Assembly (NCBI GenBank): GCA_030627205.1
Contig: DAOUSN010000027.1
Coordinates: forward strand, 1-34,909
DNA from: Methylococcaceae bacterium
GTDB taxonomy: Bacteria; Pseudomonadota; Gammaproteobacteria; Methylococcales; Methylomonadaceae
Length of the DNA stretch: 34,909 bases
Direction of reading: 5' to 3'
The notes under the pieces are model-generated. The model saw nothing but the letters and a program-made list of their open reading frames with translations. It made no database searches and had not been told where the DNA came from. The translations under genes were made by a program, and so were the position numbers. Below, piece by piece: positions 1,882 through 34,909 of the stretch (positions within the stretch are counted from its first letter, which is position 1; each line of letters starts with the position of its first letter).

Positions 1882-3963
1882 CTAATCTTCTTTATCAACT
1901 GCTTTCATGCTAAGTCTAACGCGACCTTGTCGGTCAATTTCTAAAACCTTAACTTTTACTATTTCACCTTCTGTGAGTTTATCACTTACCTTTTCAACTC
2001 GTTCTTCAGAGATTTGCGAAATATGTACTAAGCCATCTTTACCAGGTAAAATAGTTACAAAAGCTCCAAAGTCCATTAAACGTGCAACTTTACCTTCGTA
2101 AATTTTTCCAACTTCAACTTCGGCAGTAATTTCTTCAATAATTCTTTTAGCTTCTTCACCAGCAGCTTTATCAACTGAAGCAATTTTAACAATTCCATCA
2201 TCGGTTAAATCAACACTAGCCCCTGTTTGCTCAGTAATACCACGAATAGTTGCTCCACCTTTACCAATGACTTCTCTAATTTTACTCGGATCAATCTTAA
2301 AGGTAATAATACGTGGGGCGTAATCAGACATTTCTTCGCGCGTTTCTGATAAGGCTTTGTTCATTTCACCTAAAATATACAAGCGCCCTTCTTTTGCTTG
2401 TGCTAAGGCAGACCTCATGATTTCAGCGGTAATGCCATCAATTTTAATGTCCATTTGCAGCGCGGTAATGCCATCTTTAGACCCAGCAACTTTAAAATCC
2501 ATGTCACCTAAATGATCTTCATCTCCCATAATGTCAGATAAAACGGCAAAATCATCACCTTCTTTTATCAATCCCATAGCAATACCTGCGACAGGTGATT
2601 GTAATGGTACTCCTGCATCCATTAGGGCTAAACTACTACCACAGACAGATGCCATAGAGCTTGAACCATTGGATTCAGTAATTTCAGAAACTAAGCGAAT
2701 AACATAAGGAAAATCATCCATATCTGGTAAAACTGCTTGCACACCACGTTTTGCTAACCGACCGTGTCCAATTTCTCGGCGCTTTGGAGAACCAATAAAA
2801 CCTGTTTCACCTACACAATAAGGGGGAAAGTTATAATGAAGCATGAAATTATCTTTATATTCACCTGCTAAGGCATCAATAATTTGTGCATCACGTGCAG
2901 TTCCTAAGGTTGCAACCACAATTGCTTGAGTTTCACCACGGGTAAATAATGCTGAACCATGCGTTCTAGGTAAAACTCCAGTTCTAACACTAATTGGTCT
3001 AACAGTAGCTAAATCTCGTCCATCAATACGTTTACTATCTTGTAAAATTGAACGACGAACCACTTTCTTTTCTAAATGTTCAATAATGTCACGAATCGCT
3101 TTTTCTTCATATTGGTCGTCAGCAGTTAGTTTTTCAATAATAGCATTTCTAATAGCTTTTAAAGATTCTTGTCTAACTAATTTTTCTGCAATTTGATAAG
3201 CTTCTTTAATCGCAGCTTCTATTTCAACGCTAATTAAATTTTCTAAAGTCGTATCAATTTCAGTGGCAACCCATTCGTCTTTAGATTTACCAACTTCTGT
3301 AGCAAATTCATTAATGGCAGTAATTGCCACCTGCATCGCTTCATGACCAAATAAAACCGCATCAAGCATTACATCTTCTGATAAACACTGGGCTTCAGAT
3401 TCTACCATTAATACCGCGTCTTTAGTTCCTGCTACAGTAAGTGCTAATAAAGAATCGTCTAATTCAGTCGCTGATGGGTTTAATAAATATTCCCCTTCTT
3501 TATAACCAACAGTTGCAGCCCCTACTGGACCGTTAAAAGGTAATCCTGATATAGCTAACGCCGCAGAAGAACCTAATAAAGCAGGTATTTCTGGATCAAC
3601 TTCTGGATTTAATGACATAACCGTGACAATAATTTGCACCTCGTCAATATAACCATCTGGAAATAAAGGTCTAATAGGTCTGTCGATTAGGCGTGAAGTT
3701 AATGTTTCTTTTTCAGTAGGGCGACCTTCACGTTTAAAAAACCCGCCTGGAATTTTTCCAGCAGCATAGGCTTTTTCTTGATAATTAACTGTCAATGGGA
3801 AAAAGTCACCGCCTTTTTCATTTTTTTTACCCACAACAGAGACTAATAATGAGGTTCCATCTACATTAATAATAACTGCTGCATCGGCTTGACGGGCAAT
3901 TTCACCAGTTTCTAGGGTGATAAGTTTATCACCATATTGAAATTCTTTCCTGATAGGGTTCAC
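1882..3963 (-). CDS. pnp: Polyribonucleotide nucleotidyltransferase (PNPase)
   Basis: 693 residues, normal for PNPase, a phosphorolytic 3'-to-5' exoribonuclease of the RNA degradosome. Domain order: first RNase PH domain (about 10-145), all-helical linker, second RNase PH domain (about 325-460, with [29 protein letters not shown], and the catalytic-site region [15 protein letters not shown] and [19 protein letters not shown]), KH domain (about 553-612, with [15 protein letters not shown]) and S1 domain (about 622-690, with [13 protein letters not shown] and DGLVHISQI). The start codon is GTG (3961-3963), preceded by AAGGA about ten bases upstream. It is the last gene of the rimP-to-pnp run. 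A terminator lies between rpsO and pnp, as in E. coli, where pnp also has its own promoter and autoregulates through its leader. Confidence 0.98.
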
Positions 3964-4024
3964 TACAAGGTTTCCTTAATTTAAGGTTATTTTAAAAAAT
4001 AGGCTTCTATTTATGACAATAAAC

Positions 4025-4055
4025 AAAAAACGGCATATAAGATGCCGTTTTTAAG
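4025..4055 (-). terminator. Intrinsic terminator between rpsO and pnp
   Basis: On the minus strand, 6-bp arms CGGCAT (4042-4047) and ATGCCG (4031-4036) flank a 5-base loop. A-rich bases before and a U-run after extend the stem with A-U pairs and give a classic rho-independent terminator. It sits 10-38 bases past the rpsO stop and 60 bases ahead of the pnp GTG. The matching position of the E. coli rpsO terminator suggests partial read-through into pnp. Confidence 0.85.
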
Positions 4056-4062
4056 ATATTTG

Positions 4063-4332
4063 CTATTTACGTAAACCAAGACGCGCAATTAATGCACGAT
4101 AACGTTCTACGTCTTTTTTCTTTAGGTAATCAAGCATTTTACGACGTTGATTAACCATGCGTAATAATCCACGGCGTGAATGGTTATCTTTTTTATGTGC
4201 CGCAAAATGAGGGGTTAAATGAGTAATGTGAGCGGTTAATAAGGCAACCTGGACTTCTGCTGACCCTGTATCAGTATCAGATAAACGGTATTCTTTAATA
4301 ATGGCTTGTTTTTGTTCTGTTGTAAAAGGCAC
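4063..4332 (-). CDS. rpsO: 30S ribosomal protein S15
   Basis: 89 residues, the standard S15 length. It is a primary 16S rRNA-binding protein of the small-subunit platform. Diagnostic segments are [39 protein letters not shown] and [20 protein letters not shown], ending LGLRK. The start codon is GTG (4330-4332), with AGGGAT just upstream. It lies between truB and pnp, an arrangement conserved across Gammaproteobacteria. An AT-rich hairpin with a U-run in the truB-rpsO gap suggests that rpsO also relies on its own promoter. Confidence 0.98.
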
Positions 4333-4360
4333 TTTATAATCCCTATAGATTTAAAGATTT

Positions 4361-4383
4361 AAAAAAAATCATCAATTTGATGA
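4361..4383 (-). terminator. Weak intrinsic terminator between truB and rpsO
   Basis: On the minus strand TCATCA (4378-4383) and TGATGA (4369-4374) pair across a short A/T loop and are followed directly by eight U residues (4361-4368). The stem is only 6 bp and AT-rich, so termination is probably partial. It would uncouple S15/PNPase expression from the upstream nusA-infB operon. Confidence 0.5.
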
Positions 4384-4417
4384 CAGAAATAATAATTTCC
4401 ACAATAGGGCGTAGAAA

Positions 4418-5320
4418 TTAAGGTGATAAATTAAATAATTTTTTAGGGGCAAGTCGCCCATTAACCAACATTTCGCCTAATCCTAAAAAATTCTGTTGAT
4501 TATACATCCTTACTTTCCCTAATAAAGAATATTTTGTATTAATTGACTGACCTTGACGAATCGCAGCGGATTGGTTGTCAGAAAGTTCAATTTTAGCTAG
4601 TGATGTTAAGGGGTAGTCAACGGTTAATAAACAGTTCTGTAAGCTAGCTTTATCCATAGCAGTTAATTGCTCAATGGTATAGCTATTTTCAATAGTAAAT
4701 TGTCCTGCCTGTAATCTCCGTAAAGCTTTAACCATAGCAACTGTCTGTAAATGTTGACCTACATCTTCAGCTAATGAGCGAATATACGTGCCTTTTGAAC
4801 AAAAAACCTCTAAAGTAATACTGTCTTTAGTAAAATTAAGTAATGTTAATTCAAACAGGGTGATTTTTCGTGCCTTTCGGTCTACAGTAATTCCTTCACG
4901 TGCCAATTCATAAAGTTTTTTTCCTTGATGTTTTAAGGCAGAATACATCGGTGGAACTTGTTCTATCTCACCTGTAAAAGCCTGTAAGCAAGATTCGAGT
5001 AATGGTGTAGATAATTTGGGAACAGGCTGATTATTAAGGATCTTGCCTTCAGCATCCCCTGTATCAGTTAAAATACCTAATTGAATTTCAACTAGATAGC
5101 GTTTATGATCGGCTAACATTAAAGCTGATACCTTGGTAGCTTCTCCGAAACATAAGGGCAATAAACCTGTTGCCAATGGGTCTAAGCTTCCTGTATGCCC
5201 TGCTTTATTAGCATTAAATAATCGTCTTACTTCTTGCAAAGCACGATTAGAGGAAACCCCTAAGCGTTTATCAAGTAACAAAATCCCATGGATGTTAAGC
5301 CCAGATTTCCGTTTTGACAT
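4418..5320 (-). CDS. truB: tRNA pseudouridine(55) synthase TruB
   Basis: 300 residues. TruB converts U55 of the T-loop in nearly all elongator tRNAs to pseudouridine. The N-terminus GILLLDKRLGVSSN and the catalytic motif GHTGSLDPLATGLL, with catalytic aspartate at about residue 47, are clear. So are the RYLVEIQLGILTDTGDAEG block and the FCSKGTYIRSLAEDVG motif II. The C-terminal region (about 250-300: SNDNQ-type stretch, GQSINTK, FLGLGEM) is the small PUA-like domain. It follows rbfA with only a 3-base gap, so the two are co-transcribed. Confidence 0.97.
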   Translation of the reverse strand: MSKRKSGLNIHGILLLDKRLGVSSNRALQEVRRLFNANKAGHTGSLDPLATGLLPLCFGEATKVSALMLADHKRYLVEIQLGILTDTGDAEGKILNNQPVPKLSTPLLESCLQAFTGEIEQVPPMYSALKHQGKKLYELAREGITVDRKARKITLFELTLLNFTKDSITLEVFCSKGTYIRSLAEDVGQHLQTVAMVKALRRLQAGQFTIENSYTIEQLTAMDKASLQNCLLTVDYPLTSLAKIELSDNQSAAIRQGQSINTKYSLLGKVRMYNQQNFLGLGEMLVNGRLAPKKLFNLSP

Positions 5321-5323
5321 AGG

Positions 5324-5689
5324 CTAGTCATTATCCTGCTGAGGAATAACATCGTGCAATAACTCACTTACACGTATTCCTGTATCAAATGAATGGTCAT
5401 AAATAAAGCGTAATTCTGAAACATGACGTAAACGCATTCGTTTAGCAAGGTGATGTCGAATAACAGGCACACGCTCATTTAAGCGTTTAATTTGTTGTTC
5501 TTTAGTTACTTCATCCCCATTAAGAATGGTAATATAAACTTTAGCAAGGGCTAAATCTTTACTAAGCTCAACTTCATTGACAGTAATAAAACCTAATCGT
5601 GAATCATCTATATCACGTTGAAAAACTAGCGCGAGTTCTTTTTGAATTTGAGATGAAACCCGCGCACTACGACTGAATTCTCTTGCCAT
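5324..5689 (-). CDS. rbfA: 30S ribosome-binding factor RbfA
   Basis: 121 residues, the usual size of this single KH-like-domain assembly factor, which binds the 30S subunit near helix 1 of 16S rRNA during late maturation and cold adaptation. The family signature is seen in EFSRSARVSSQIQKELA at the N-terminus and LRHVSELRFIYDHSFDTGIRVSELL near the C-terminus. It lies in the infB-rbfA-truB order, with 3-base gaps to both neighbours. Confidence 0.96.
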   Translation of the reverse strand: MAREFSRSARVSSQIQKELALVFQRDIDDSRLGFITVNEVELSKDLALAKVYITILNGDEVTKEQQIKRLNERVPVIRHHLAKRMRLRHVSELRFIYDHSFDTGIRVSELLHDVIPQQDND

Positions 5690-11940: not shown

Positions 11941-12567
11941 ATGAAAATAAAAGATAAATCAATAGAATTTTTCTTAGAAGAGTTAGCCAGTAAAGCAGCA
12001 ACACCTGGTGGAGGAAGCGTTGCAGCAATGATGGGCGCGCAATCAGCAGCATTGATAAGTATGGTTTGTCGTTTAACTATTGGTAAAGATGATTATGCTA
12101 ATGTTGAAACAGATATGAAAGATTTATTGAAAAAATCAGTGGAATTACATAAAAAGTTAACAGCAATGATTCAAGCAGATGTTGATGTTTTTAATCGTAT
12201 TATGGCGTGTTATCGTTTGCCTAAATTAACGAATCAGGAAAAAGAACAACGTAGTGTTAAAATTCAACAGGTTCTGAAAGAGGCAACTATGGTTCCTTTA
12301 GATTGTGTTCACGCATGTGTAGAGGCGATCAAATTAGCTCGTGTTGCTGCAAATAAAGGAAGTTTAACGGTTGTTAGTGATGCAGGAGTTGCGGTTATAA
12401 GTGCTTATGCTGGTATAAAAAGTTCAGCACTCAATGTTTATATCAATACTAATAGCATTAAAGATCAGGTTTTTGTTAAAGAAAAGTTACTTGAGTTGGA
12501 TGCTCTATTAGAAGGTATTAGCGTTGAAACAGATGAAATTTATCAAATTGTTAAAGAAAAATTATAA
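11941..12567 (+). CDS. fchA: Methenyltetrahydrofolate cyclohydrolase, FchA type
   Basis: 208 residues of the formiminotetrahydrofolate cyclodeaminase/FchA superfamily. It has the characteristic TPGGGSVAAMMGAQSAALISMV near residues 20-42, the LTIGKDDY that follows, a Q-A-D-V-D-V-F helix around 78-84, and the ANKGSLTVVSDAGVAV segment. In methylotrophs FchA hydrolyses methenyl-H4folate to 10-formyl-H4folate, linking formate and methylene-H4folate in one-carbon assimilation, usually beside MtdA and FtfL. Those partners are not in the window. A stand-alone cyclodeaminase for histidine or glycine degradation is the alternative. The methylotrophy context (Fae-family gene nearby) favours FchA. Confidence 0.85.
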   Translation: MKIKDKSIEFFLEELASKAATPGGGSVAAMMGAQSAALISMVCRLTIGKDDYANVETDMKDLLKKSVELHKKLTAMIQADVDVFNRIMACYRLPKLTNQEKEQRSVKIQQVLKEATMVPLDCVHACVEAIKLARVAANKGSLTVVSDAGVAVISAYAGIKSSALNVYINTNSIKDQVFVKEKLLELDALLEGISVETDEIYQIVKEKL

Positions 12568-13291: not shown

Positions 13292-13840
13292 TTAAATTTT
13301 ACCGTCTAAACCCATTTGAAAATATTTATGGGTAATTTTTTCTTGATTTTCTAATAACCAATCAATGCTAGGCTCATTATTCATGGCTTTTTTAATCGCT
13401 AACGCCGTTGCCTTACGATGAATATCAAATAAAATTTGATGATCTAAATTATCATCTTTAGCAACACTAGGATTTAACCAAACTGAACAGATAATACCTA
13501 AGTCATTTGCTTTTTCTTTAGGAATATCACCTGCACGCACAGCATCTAAAACCCCATTAGCAATAGCTGCTTGTACTGTTCCCATTAAAATATTGGTATA
13601 ACGATTATTGTTAACGGTTACTTTGCTTACCATTAAGGTGACAGGACGCACTTGAATATCAGTGTTTAAAATAGCAAACACTTTAGAGTGACCTTTTGCT
13701 TGATCTCCAGTTAATGTCGCTAATGCAATGCCAACAGGACCATCTAGTTCACCAATAACAATTTCAGGTTCTGCTGCTGTTCCAGGAGGTCCACCTGCTA
13801 CCAATGCTTCGCCTGTACGCAATACAATTCTATCATTCAT
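13292..13840 (-). CDS. Formaldehyde-activating enzyme family protein (divergent Fae paralog)
   Basis: 182 residues, a full Fae domain. Canonical Fae condenses formaldehyde with tetrahydromethanopterin in methylotrophs. Conserved elements include GEALV near the N-terminus, the central RPVTLMVSKVTVNN strand (Fae: KPNTLMFNKVTIN), a GTVQAAIANGVLDAV helix and a C-terminal ATALAIKKAMNNEPS. Canonical Fae has AHIDLIIG, whose histidine (His17) is the proposed active-site base. This protein reads AEPEIVIG at the aligned place, so that histidine is replaced by glutamate. It is therefore more like the Fae2/Fae3-type paralogs of unknown function than the housekeeping enzyme. The ribosome-binding site GGAG is clear. 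It diverges from the radical SAM gene. Confidence 0.85.
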   Translation of the reverse strand: MNDRIVLRTGEALVAGGPPGTAAEPEIVIGELDGPVGIALATLTGDQAKGHSKVFAILNTDIQVRPVTLMVSKVTVNNNRYTNILMGTVQAAIANGVLDAVRAGDIPKEKANDLGIICSVWLNPSVAKDDNLDHQILFDIHRKATALAIKKAMNNEPSIDWLLENQEKITHKYFQMGLDGKI

Positions 13841-31049: not shown

Positions 31050-32447
31050 TTGTTACGCTTATTTTTGATCTTTGCATCATTGTTTTTATTACCTGAACTT
31101 GGTATGGCTGAGGAATTAGTCACGGCTGTTGTAGAAGAAAAAGAGGGGGCAAATATTTTAGGTCTCACAGGCACAGAACGAGGTATTTATACGGTCATTA
31201 TTTTCATCATCGCTTATGGTTTTGTGATGGCAGAAGAATTTACGGGCTTAAGTAAATCGAAACCTGTTATTTTAGCCGCCGCCATTATTTGGGCGCATGC
31301 GGCTGTTTTAGCAACGTCTATGGGTGTTCCTATTGAAGAACTGCATGAAGAAATTGAATTTGATTTAAAAGAATATGCGGCGTTAATGTTGTTCTTGTTA
31401 GTTGCCATGACTTATATTAATGCCATGGCAGAACGTAATGTGTTTGAAGCTTTACGTTCTTGGATGATTAGAAAAGAATTTAATTATAAACAATTATTTT
31501 GGATTACAGGGATTATTACTTTCTTTTTATCGGCAGTCGCTGATAATTTAACTTCCGCCTTATTAGTCGGTGCAGTGGTAACCGCAGTGGGAGCAAATAG
31601 TCCTAAATTTATTGCGATTGGCTTTGTTAATTTAGTCGTTGCTGCCAATGCAGGCGGGGCATTTAGTCCTTTTGGCGATATTACTACGTTAATGGTATGG
31701 CAAGCAGGTTATGTGGAATTCTTTGATTTCTTTAGTTTATTTATTCCCTCGGTTGTTAATTATATTATTCCTGCCTTTTTTATGTATCTTGCCGTTCCTG
31801 ATGAAAAACCCCTTGCAACGAATGAAGAAGCTGTTGTGATGAAACAGGGTGCAATCACGATTTGTGTTTTATTTGCCATGACGATTGCAACCGCCGTTTG
31901 TTTTAAACAATTCCTTCATTTACCGCCTTTTATGGGAATGATGGCAGGACTTTCTATTTTAATGATTTATGGTTATAGCATTAATTTAACTGAAAAAGAA
32001 GCCGATGAAGTTAATCCTTTTGATATTTTTGATAAAATTCGTGATGCTGAATGGGATACCTTATTTTTCTTCTTTGGGGTCGTATTCTCAGTCGGCGGTT
32101 TAGCTTACATTGGTTATTTAGAATTATTATCGCTCGCTATGTATGATGGTTTAGGGGCAACAACTGCTAATATTTTGGTCGGAGGATTATCTGCTGTGAT
32201 TGATAATATTCCTGTGATGTTTGCGGTGTTAAATATGGGTCTGGATATGGACTTGTATCAATGGTTGTTAGTGACATTAACTGCAGGTGTTGGGGGTTCA
32301 ATGTTATCGGTCGGTTCTGCGGCGGGCGTTGCGTTAATGGGACAATCAAACCATAAATATACCTTTTTTACTCACATGAAATGGACACCTGTGATTGCTT
32401 TAGGTTATTTTGCCAGTATTTTTACCCACTATTTAGTTAATGGTTAA
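31050..32447 (+). CDS. nhaD: Sodium/proton antiporter NhaD
   Basis: 465 residues. Inner-membrane Na+/H+ antiporter of the NhaD type, with an N-terminal hydrophobic leader (MLRLFLIFASLFLLPELGMAEE) and about 12 further membrane helices. Conserved intramembrane motifs are SAVADNLTSALLVGA, GGAFSPFGDITTLMVWQ and AVIDNIPVMFAVL; the acidic residues and broken-helix glycines are the cation pathway. The start codon is TTG at 31050, fixed by a full GGAGG six bases upstream. TATAAT at 30981-30986 is a likely -10 box. It stands alone, ending before a palindromic repeat. Confidence 0.92.
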   Translation: MLRLFLIFASLFLLPELGMAEELVTAVVEEKEGANILGLTGTERGIYTVIIFIIAYGFVMAEEFTGLSKSKPVILAAAIIWAHAAVLATSMGVPIEELHEEIEFDLKEYAALMLFLLVAMTYINAMAERNVFEALRSWMIRKEFNYKQLFWITGIITFFLSAVADNLTSALLVGAVVTAVGANSPKFIAIGFVNLVVAANAGGAFSPFGDITTLMVWQAGYVEFFDFFSLFIPSVVNYIIPAFFMYLAVPDEKPLATNEEAVVMKQGAITICVLFAMTIATAVCFKQFLHLPPFMGMMAGLSILMIYGYSINLTEKEADEVNPFDIFDKIRDAEWDTLFFFFGVVFSVGGLAYIGYLELLSLAMYDGLGATTANILVGGLSAVIDNIPVMFAVLNMGLDMDLYQWLLVTLTAGVGGSMLSVGSAAGVALMGQSNHKYTFFTHMKWTPVIALGYFASIFTHYLVNG

Positions 32448-32506
32448 GAAAAGAGATATGTATTAAATTTTATTTTTAATAAATTTATTTATAAAGTACA
32501 TAATTT

Positions 32507-32531
32507 AATTCCCACGTTCTGCGTGGGAATT
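32507..32531. repeat. Palindromic repeat between convergent nhaD and the JetD-like gene
   Basis: AATTCCCACG (32507-32516) and CGTGGGAATT (32522-32531) form perfect 10-bp arms around a 5-base loop. T/A-rich flanks on both sides would let it act as a bidirectional terminator. The motif CCCACG..CGTGGG is a dispersed palindrome in several gamma-methanotroph and nitrifier genomes (recalled, not searched); compare 11872-11919. Confidence 0.65.
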
Positions 32532-32552
32532 TATAAGAGTAAAAATATACAA

Positions 32553-33575
32553 CTAGTAATGAAATTGTAATTCTTCGTAGCCTAAAGCTTCTTGCGGAAA
32601 CCAAATATTCTCTGCAAACAACTGCTTTATTTTTTCTTCTATACTTTCAGAAAGCCAGCCAGTAAGATAACTAGATTGTTTACCTTTTAGTAAAGAGCGT
32701 TTAATTCCATTTTCTAGCAACCATTCATAAAGCTCAATTTCAGGTAATATAGGTAGCATAGCTTTTGCAATACGGGCTTGGTTGACTCGCGCAGGAATAC
32801 TAATTCCTTTGGGGTCAATATCACCAAAATATTTTATTTCACTTGCGTTTAGTAAACTAATAATCTCTTCAATACTGTCATTTTCTAAGCTAGAAAAAGC
32901 TTCGCCTGCGCCATAGCCAATGCCTGAATAATGTCGAGCGGTTTCATTCCATTTACAGAAACTTGCAAAAGTATGATGATTTTCAATAATGAGAAAAGCT
33001 TTATTTGGACAGGGTGTTGAAGGTTGTTTATAAGGTATCGGCCAATTGACATCATAGCAACCAAGTTCTTCTAAGCTTAGATTATTGCTTAATAAATGAC
33101 CTTTATTAGAAAGGCTATCCAGCCTTTTTTCATCCTTAAATATTTTTAAAGAGCGTTCTCGGCGCGGAATTAAAAATTCAAATTTTCCTTTATCCGTGTT
33201 GTGCTTTAAATATTCACTGATTTTAAAAGCCACTTCCTTTTGTTTAAGGTTTAAATTATCAACAAAAGGCGCAAGTTTAGGGTGCCAGGCATAAGCTTTA
33301 GGAATAATAGATGTTGTAGATTCGATGAGATTAATCATTATCCAACTTGGCAGACTAGGATTTCCAGCTCGCCAAGATTTACCATTCATTGACGGCAGTT
33401 GTATTTTTTCGTCATTAGAAAGAAAATCAATGATTTCTCTTAAATGCTGAGGTTGCTCAGATTCATTTTTGTATTCAGGAAAAATATGAATATGCGCCCC
33501 CATCATTTGTTCAAAGTTTTTTTTCTTTCCTTTTCCTTGCGTAAGAAGTCGTAAAAATTCTTCTGCCCCTTTCAT
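32553..33575 (-). CDS. Wadjet JetD-like Toprim nuclease subunit (DUF3322/DUF2220)
   Basis: 340 residues. Its C-terminal half carries a Toprim-type site: glutamate 198 in FLIIENHHTF and the acid pair D252/D254 in YFGDIDPKGISI. The preceding RRERSLKIFKDEKRLDSL resembles a conserved region of JetD-type proteins (REKSLeIFGDEKRL). In Wadjet systems JetD cuts plasmid DNA held by the JetABC SMC complex. The start ATG at 33575 overlaps the stop of the SMC-like gene (ATGA), so the pair is co-translated. The order SMC then JetD is the Wadjet order; jetA and jetB homologs would lie past the right edge. The family call is from motifs, not a search. Confidence 0.75.
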   Translation of the reverse strand: MKGAEEFLRLLTQGKGKKKNFEQMMGAHIHIFPEYKNESEQPQHLREIIDFLSNDEKIQLPSMNGKSWRAGNPSLPSWIMINLIESTTSIIPKAYAWHPKLAPFVDNLNLKQKEVAFKISEYLKHNTDKGKFEFLIPRRERSLKIFKDEKRLDSLSNKGHLLSNNLSLEELGCYDVNWPIPYKQPSTPCPNKAFLIIENHHTFASFCKWNETARHYSGIGYGAGEAFSSLENDSIEEIISLLNASEIKYFGDIDPKGISIPARVNQARIAKAMLPILPEIELYEWLLENGIKRSLLKGKQSSYLTGWLSESIEEKIKQLFAENIWFPQEALGYEELQFHY

Positions 33576-34909
33576 TGTGAAGCCTCTTGTGAAGCCTCTT
33601 GTGAAGCCTCGCGTTCTTCTTCAAGATTAAAGCTAAAACCTATAGATTCTATTTTATATTTATCAAAATTAAGAGTGTCTCCAATTTCATTGGCTTTTTT
33701 TCCTTCAATTTCTACATATTGACGATTACTATTATTGTCGATTTTATCCTTACGCAAGCGGATTATATGTTCAAATTCTCCAATAGCATTAAGGTCTTCA
33801 ATCCCTGTTGCAAAAATAAGTTGAATGCCTAGTTTTTTGGCTAATTGCGTTTGAGGGCGGATTAAATCAATTTTATTAACTTTAGAAAAAGGATTGTCCA
33901 ATAATAAAAAGCTTCCTTTAGCACTATAACTGCCTTTGGTCATCATACTACTACGAATGTTAGCAATCACCAGATAAAGTAATAAGCCCGCCGTTAACCC
34001 TTCTCCACCACTGCCTATCATACTGCTAACAGGGATATACTCTATTTGAACATCATCAGGTTTGATGATTCGGATATTCAGCCCCGTTTTTTGTTTATGA
34101 TGTTCGCTTGAAAGTATGCTTTCATAGGCTTTTAATAAAAGAGTCGCCGCCAATTTATAACCTGTTTCATCAACAGATTTTATTTCTACGGTCTTTTTTA
34201 CATGAGAAAGGTAGAGAGCATGGCGTTGCTGTTCTGAAAATGAGGTTTTTAATTTATGCTTACTTTTTAGTCTGCTTTTTAATATTGGCATTTTGCTGTA
34301 ATGCTGCATATCGGCAGGAATCCTTACTTTAAAGGCTTCATGTAACGCATCATCTGCTTCTAAAAGTAAATAATCAAAACAGCTATTGATGACACCTAGT
34401 TTTTCAGTGTTAATTTTAATTTGGCTTTCTACAACATTAAGCGCATCTTGTAGGGTTATAAAATGATGTTTAGGTTGCTTAAGTAATTGGTTTATAGCTA
34501 TATTTTCAATATCTATTGCGATGACACCTAAACGCTGATTATTTTCAGAATTTTTTACAATAGGAATAATTTTGTTATTAAAAAGCCGTTTAACTTTTTC
34601 TTCCTCTGTTTTTCTTTGATTGACAATACTCTTTTTAGTGCTATTAGCTGTCGTTAGTTTAGTTGATAGATCGTCAGAGTTAATATTTTCAGCCAAGCTT
34701 AAATCTTCCTCATTAGCCGATGAAATAACTAATTCATTTGGAAGTGTTTTAATCGTCGCATCAACCGCACTTAGCTCAAGATTTAAAGCCTGCTCATTTT
34801 CTTTATCAAGGTTATAAGATTTAATCAACTTTTCGATGATTTTATTTGTTGATACTTTATTATTTTCCTGCTTTTCTAAAAAAGTCTTTAATTCTGGCAA
34901 TGAATTAGG
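33572..34909 (-). CDS. SMC-like ATPase (Wadjet JetC-like), C-terminal part; N-terminus beyond right edge
   Basis: The frame is open to the last base of the window; 34900 is only an internal TTG. The visible ~445 residues end a coiled-coil ABC/SMC protein: helical segments first, then the C-terminal head with signature SGGEG (residues about 297-301 counted from 34900) and Walker B FLLLDN (about 331-336), followed by LIRPQTQLAKKLGIQLIFATG. The Walker B aspartate is followed by asparagine rather than the usual catalytic glutamate. The very C-terminus is three copies of EASQ from a 12-base tandem repeat. Wadjet JetC or a MukB-like relative is the best reading, given the following JetD-like gene. 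Confidence 0.7.
   Translation of the reverse strand, partial: PNSLPELKTFLEKQENNKVSTNKIIEKLIKSYNLDKENEQALNLELSAVDATIKTLPNELVISSANEEDLSLAENINSDDLSTKLTTANSTKKSIVNQRKTEEEKVKRLFNNKIIPIVKNSENNQRLGVIAIDIENIAINQLLKQPKHHFITLQDALNVVESQIKINTEKLGVINSCFDYLLLEADDALHEAFKVRIPADMQHYSKMPILKSRLKSKHKLKTSFSEQQRHALYLSHVKKTVEIKSVDETGYKLAATLLLKAYESILSSEHHKQKTGLNIRIIKPDDVQIEYIPVSSMIGSGGEGLTAGLLLYLVIANIRSSMMTKGSYSAKGSFLLLDNPFSKVNKIDLIRPQTQLAKKLGIQLIFATGIEDLNAIGEFEHIIRLRKDKIDNNSNRQYVEIEGKKANEIGDTLNFDKYKIESIGFSFNLEEEREASQEASQEASQ
33575..33610. repeat. Three perfect 12-base tandem copies at the SMC-like gene's 3' end
   Basis: TTGTGAAGCCTC occurs three times head to tail (33575-33586, 33587-33598, 33599-33610). In the minus-strand protein it encodes EASQ-EASQ-EASQ directly before the stop, and the first copy overlaps the JetD-like ATG. 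The unit is a multiple of three, so copy changes would alter tail length without frameshift. Confidence 0.9.

What the first reader, a model, noticed from the sequence alone, without database searches (positions are those of the whole stretch)
32553..34909. Downstream end of a Wadjet-like SMC/Toprim defence system at the right edge
Seen: an SMC-type ATPase head (SGGEG signature, Walker B), co-translated (ATGA) with a protein bearing a Toprim E...DxD site and the RERSLKIF-DEKRL pattern. Known: Wadjet (JetABCD) systems restrict plasmids by SMC-driven loop extrusion and JetD cleavage. Inference: jetA and jetB genes lie beyond the edge, and the region to the right may be a defence island. The sequences look diverged enough to merit typing.
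Basis: partly seen in the sequence, partly recalled or inferred. Interest (0 to 1): 0.75.

Follow-up and report, generated by a model that had tools for sequence, protein, structure and literature searches.

The report
Type III Wadjet operon, split contig
The right edge of the window carries the last two genes (jetC tail and jetD) of a type III Wadjet anti-plasmid system, whose first genes were found on another contig of the same methylotroph genome; the system is of a known kind, but the motor protein of every type III system checked here lacks the glutamate that normally drives ATP hydrolysis.

Summary
ORF 32553-33575 (-) is JetD: PADLOC JetD3 231.6 bits, Pfam JetD_C over its cut-off, Toprim residues E198/D252/D254 invariant in 7 homologues. 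The 445-aa ORF 33572-34909 (-) is the C-terminal ATPase head of JetC3; the two overlap by ATGA. The contig ends at 34909 inside jetC. The rest of the operon was found on contig C38 (5,612 bp) of the same genome: jetA (JetA3, 197 bits; model closest to kleisin MukF), jetB (model closest to MukE/JetB KITE proteins) and jetC residues 1-938. About 104 residues of coiled coil are missing between the contigs. A complete relative in the same family (JetD 61-63% identical) confirms the order ABCD. In relatives nhaD is followed by ampG; here the Wadjet operon follows nhaD, so it was probably acquired. A wider defence island was not shown. New member of a known kind, with one testable oddity.

The parts
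32553..33575 (-). jetD (type III), 340 aa: N-terminal region with RERSLKIFKDEKRL plus C-terminal Toprim nuclease domain; acidic residues E198 (32984-32982), D252 (32822-32820), D254 (32816-32814)
   Evidence: PADLOC JetD3 PDLC00594 231.6 bits E 4.3e-69; Pfam JetD_C 28 bits, cut-off 22; invariant columns across 7 homologues; profile aligns E and DxD with the MksG Toprim 8b7f, weakly, E 0.12
33572..34909 (-). jetC (type III), C-terminal 445 aa: end of the coiled coil plus C-terminal ATPase half-head; 5' part lies on contig C38 of the same genome
   Evidence: PADLOC JetC3 109.3 bits E 3.1e-32; matches residues 1062-1464 of the complete JetC of relative G056
33998..34012 (-). ABC signature motif SGGEG
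   Evidence: SGG invariant in 7 aligned type III heads
33890..33907 (-). Walker B strand LLLDNP: Asn (33895-33893) where the catalytic Glu is expected
   Evidence: DNP in 10 of 10 type III JetC; DE in 9 of 9 type I/MksB-like controls
33572..33575 (-). ATGA overlap of the jetC stop and jetD start
   Evidence: sequence
33575..33610 (-). three tandem copies of GAGGCTTCACAA encoding EASQ-EASQ-EASQ at the JetC C-terminus, absent from relatives
   Evidence: sequence, alignment
32509..32529 (.). palindrome TTCCCACGTTCTGCGTGGGAA between the convergent nhaD and jetD; possible shared hairpin or REP-like element
   Evidence: single exact match in the window, none in shuffles

Best explanation
This is the 3' half of a type III Wadjet operon (jetABCD) that the assembly splits between contigs C38 (jetA, jetB, start of jetC) and C34 (the window: end of jetC, jetD). 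The most likely mechanism is that of Wadjet generally: JetA (kleisin), JetB (KITE) and JetC (SMC ATPase) form a loop-extruding motor that reels in small circular DNA, and completion of extrusion lets the JetD Toprim nuclease cut it, so plasmids are restricted. Shown here: gene content, order, type, conserved nuclease and signature motifs, and position next to nhaD where relatives have ampG. Inferred from types I and II: loop extrusion, size and shape sensing, JetD activation. Unclear for type III: how ATP is used, since the Walker B Glu is Asn.
For: JetD3 and JetC3 profile matches; JetC3 residues 1-917 on C38 with an open frame to its end; JetA3 197 bits on C38; JetB model best matches MukE/JetB, JetA model best matches MukF; complete ABCD operon in relative G056 with JetD 63% identical; same gene order in L003, Polaromonas and Rhodococcus loci; Toprim residues invariant.
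Against: About 104 aa of jetC (about 0.3 kb) are in neither contig, so an intact gene is not proven; an insertion or frameshift in the gap is possible. JetB has no PADLOC match, and the JetA/JetB models are of low confidence (pLDDT 50 and 57). Nothing here tests plasmid restriction. The Walker B Asn is unexpected for an ATP-driven motor.
Confidence: 0.92

Rival explanations
1. The operon is a decayed Wadjet remnant: jetC is interrupted or missing its middle, and the regulator has been lost to insertion sequences.
For: The contig break falls inside jetC; C38 begins with a DDE_5 transposase fragment; IS fragments sit upstream of ampG on C54; no homologue of the G056 WYL regulator was found in this genome.
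Against: All four ORFs are open without internal stops; motifs are conserved; both jetC pieces are in frame with the reference and the missing part is short coiled coil, as a plain assembly gap would leave.
Confidence: 0.12
2. It is a housekeeping MksBEF/MukBEF-type condensin with an accessory Toprim protein, not a defence system.
For: JetA and JetB models resemble MukF and MukE.
Against: JetD is present, co-translated and has intact metal-binding residues; found in 2 of 101 related genomes, as an accessory gene would be; sits at a locus where relatives have nhaD-ampG; JetC matches only JetC3 profiles.
Confidence: 0.03
3. C38 and the window carry parts of two different Wadjet systems.
For: No overlapping sequence joins them.
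Against: The genome has exactly one N-terminal and one C-terminal JetC3 piece; both run off their contig ends in frame and are complementary on the same reference.
Confidence: 0.03

Closest known systems
Wadjet type III (PADLOC JetA3/JetC3/JetD3)
   Same: Profiles of JetA3, JetC3 and JetD3 match; gene order ABCD; long JetC of about 1,470 aa
   Different: JetB escapes the PADLOC models; P-loop is NQGGKT in this genome and in G056 instead of NGGGKT; EASQ tail on JetC
Wadjet type I (E. coli GF4-3, P. aeruginosa PA14; MksBEFG of C. glutamicum)
   Same: Kleisin, KITE, SMC and Toprim subunits; JetD E and DxD residues
   Different: JetC is longer; Walker B DNP not DEA, D-loop Asp not kept; weak sequence similarity in JetD only (E about 1e-4)
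MukBEF condensin
   Same: JetA and JetB models best match MukF and MukE
   Different: JetD nuclease present; JetC gave no match to MukB in the profile search of solved structures
Lamassu LmuB
   Same: A defence SMC-like ATPase with a replaced Walker B Glu (Glu to Gln in LmuB, PMC10586767)
   Different: Different partners, size and family; here the replacement is Asn

Membership tests
Wadjet type III | JetD with C-terminal DUF2220/Toprim domain, type III profile | tested here: met
   JetD3 231.6 bits against JetD1 18.9 bits; Pfam JetD_C over cut-off
Wadjet type III | JetC SMC ATPase, type III profile | tested here: met
   JetC3 366.5 bits for the N part on C38 and 109.3 bits for the C part in the window
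Wadjet type III | JetA kleisin-like subunit | tested here: met
   JetA3 197.4 bits; structure search: MukF chains hold ranks 1-7, best E 1.7e-3, model pLDDT 50
Wadjet type III | JetB KITE-like subunit | tested here: inconclusive
   No PADLOC match; right place and size; 56% identical to JetB of G056; ranks 1-6 of the structure search are MukE or JetB but E is 0.04-0.5, pLDDT 57
Wadjet type III | Genes in one operon in the order ABCD | tested here: inconclusive
   A-B-C on C38 and C-D in the window; the two contigs are not joined; the order is complete in G056
Wadjet (any type) | Toprim metal-binding residues E and DxD | tested here: met
   E198, D252, D254 invariant in 7; MksG E236 and D279 are needed for cleavage (PMC10123090)
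Wadjet type I | SMC head with Walker B Glu (DEA) as in types I/MksB | tested here: not met
   Asn in this protein and in 10 of 10 type III JetC; so this is not a type I system, and the Glu is not a defining feature of type III
Wadjet (any type) | Restriction of plasmids | not testable with these tools
   needs an experiment

The most novel reading that the evidence does not exclude
Type III Wadjet as a class runs on an SMC head without the canonical catalytic Glu (Walker B DNP) and with a changed D-loop, so it either hydrolyses ATP by another residue or acts as a slow, switch-like clamp rather than the fast loop extruder known from types I and II.
Probability: 0.35. Interest if true: 0.6.

Novelty: new member of a known kind. 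Interest (0 to 1): 0.33.

Why it matters
As a locus it adds one more accessory Wadjet, in a methylotroph. The wider point is that type III, for which I found no structure or mechanism paper in the library, appears to have replaced the Walker B glutamate in every head examined. A Glu-to-Gln change at the corresponding site impairs ATPase activity in the type I homologue MksB (E1042Q, PMC10123090). Either type III hydrolyses ATP differently or it senses plasmids without continuous hydrolysis; both can be tested directly with existing assays, for example with the type III system found in about 1.7% of complete E. coli genomes.

Tried and rejected
Extending the contig: it ends at 34909, so the partner was found by profile search of the same genome. 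Viral contigs with JetD or the JetC head: no relatives. Phage records with JetC: none. Searches of solved structures by sequence or profile gave no significant hit for JetC, and only a weak MksG match for JetD. A type II JetC control was not obtained: the guessed model was JetB2 and rang nowhere. The terminator/promoter scan was at chance level.

Full report
What is there. On the minus strand at the right edge lie two ORFs: 33572-34909 (445 aa, running in from the contig end) and 32553-33575 (340 aa), overlapping by ATGA. The window is a whole contig, C34, and it ends at 34909. PADLOC profiles type the 340-aa protein as JetD3 (231.6 bits; the best type I JetD model gives 18.9) and the 445-aa piece as the C-terminal end of JetC3 (109.3 bits, profile positions 1279-1440 of 1451). 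Pfam JetD_C matches the 340-aa protein over its cut-off; Pfam has no match for JetC.

The missing half. A JetC3 search of the same genome found the N-terminal part on contig C38, positions 2799-5537, E 9.1e-110. C38 is 5,612 bp and carries jetA (484-2031; the true start is probably the ATG at 538, by comparison with the relative), jetB (2035-2796) and jetC residues 1-938 running off the end. JetA matches JetA3 at 197 bits; JetB has no PADLOC match. AlphaFold models from three-row alignments are weak (pLDDT 50 and 57), yet the best structural matches are MukF for JetA (ranks 1-7, best E 1.7e-3) and MukE or Wadjet JetB for JetB (ranks 1-6, best E 0.04).

The join. Against the complete 1,467-aa JetC of relative G056, C38 covers residues 1-937 and the window covers about 1042-1464. 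Both pieces are in frame at the contig ends. About 104 residues of coiled coil are missing, some 0.3 kb. I read this as an assembly gap; an interruption inside the gap cannot be excluded.

Relatives. G056 (same family, another genus) has a complete jetABCD with JetD 61-63% identical. A Deltaproteobacterium MAG (L003) and plasmids of Polaromonas and Rhodococcus have the same gene order. Two of 101 relatives, this genome included, had a JetD match. Single-model searches in the class and phylum found nothing beyond this genome or G056 (1 of 369, 1 of 398, 1 of 398), against 10 of 143 for one type I JetC model. These are lower bounds, since each used one model or a small profile. One E. coli lineage of type III JetC occurs in 90 of 5,426 complete E. 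coli genomes, all on chromosomes and at least 99% identical.

Genomic setting. Synteny with relatives runs up to the stop of nhaD (32447) and stops there. In G003, G004, G005 and G056 the next gene is an AmpG-like permease; in G001 the same gene is present, starting at a later ATG in my mechanical ORF list. In this genome ampG lies on contig C54, preceded by IS fragments, and the start of C38 holds a DDE_5 transposase fragment. The simplest reading is that the Wadjet operon and IS elements came in between nhaD and ampG. The contigs are not joined, so this is inference. In G056 the operon sits elsewhere, beside glmS. That site and L003 both carry a WYL-domain regulator upstream of jetA; none related to the G056 one was found here, and that search had no positive control. 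WYL (BrxR-type) regulators are known to co-localise with Wadjet (PMC9122601). No defence island was demonstrated. The names nhaD, ampG and glmS are my reading of the translated sequences; Pfam gives the ion-transporter family CitMHS for the first.

An oddity of type III. The Walker B strand here reads LLLDNP, with Asn where SMC and ABC ATPases have the catalytic Glu. The same DNP is in all 10 type III JetC heads examined: this genome, G056, L003, Polaromonas, E. coli, Salmonella, Rhodococcus, Microvirga and two Streptomyces. Type I and MksB-like controls extracted in the same way have DE in nine of nine. The strands align directly: VLVDEAFSKMDE (type I) against LLLDNPFSKVNK (here), which also shows the D-loop Asp changed to Asn or Thr. 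The first Gly of the P-loop is not kept either (NGGGKT in most, NQGGKT here and in G056). The signature SGG and P-loop GK[TS] are kept, so ATP binding and head engagement look possible; hydrolysis by the usual residue does not. In MksB, Glu-to-Gln at this site impairs ATPase activity and the authors call the mutant inactive (PMC10123090). Lamassu LmuB has a natural Glu-to-Gln (PMC10586767), so a defence SMC with a replaced Glu has a precedent. I found no mention of the type III change in the open library, but a main Wadjet structure paper is not held there, so novelty is unproven. A type II control is missing. From memory, not tested: type III was among the Wadjet types reported to restrict plasmids in Bacillus subtilis in the original description, which would mean the head works without this Glu.

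Mechanism. Shown: gene content, order within each contig, type, and conservation of the nuclease residues. Inferred from types I and II (PMC10586767, PMC12647877): JetABC extrudes a DNA loop, and complete extrusion of a small circle activates JetD to cut it. How type III uses ATP is open.

Verdict. The class-wide Walker B change is the part worth following.

Noticed in passing
L008 (contig C38) 1-484: Transposase fragment (DDE_5) followed by an inverted repeat GGCTACCAACTTAAAGCGGGACA / TGTCCCGCCTTAAGTTGGTAGCC directly upstream of jetA, where relatives have a WYL regulator.
   Followed up: partly
window 32447-32553; L041-L045: Synteny break at the nhaD stop: relatives have an AmpG-like permease next, here the Wadjet operon follows; ampG is on contig C54 behind IS fragments.
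   Followed up: yes
window 33575-33610: Three in-frame 12-nt tandem copies (EASQ) at the jetC 3' end just before the jetD start; copy number changes would keep the frame.
   Followed up: no
window 32509-32529: Exact palindrome TTCCCACGTTCTGCGTGGGAA between convergent nhaD and jetD, single copy in the window.
   Followed up: partly
L016 4212-9702: Type III Wadjet on a Salmonella plasmid looks broken: jetC is split into two overlapping frames and jetD is shortened (259 aa).
   Followed up: no
window 13292-13840, 11941-12567: Formaldehyde-activating enzyme (Fae) and a FTCD_C-family cyclodeaminase/cyclohydrolase: the genome is probably a methylotroph or methanotroph.
   Followed up: partly
L009 6868-7677, L003 2390-3028: WYL-domain regulators upstream of type III jetA in two distant genomes, a likely regulator of the operon.
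   Followed up: partly
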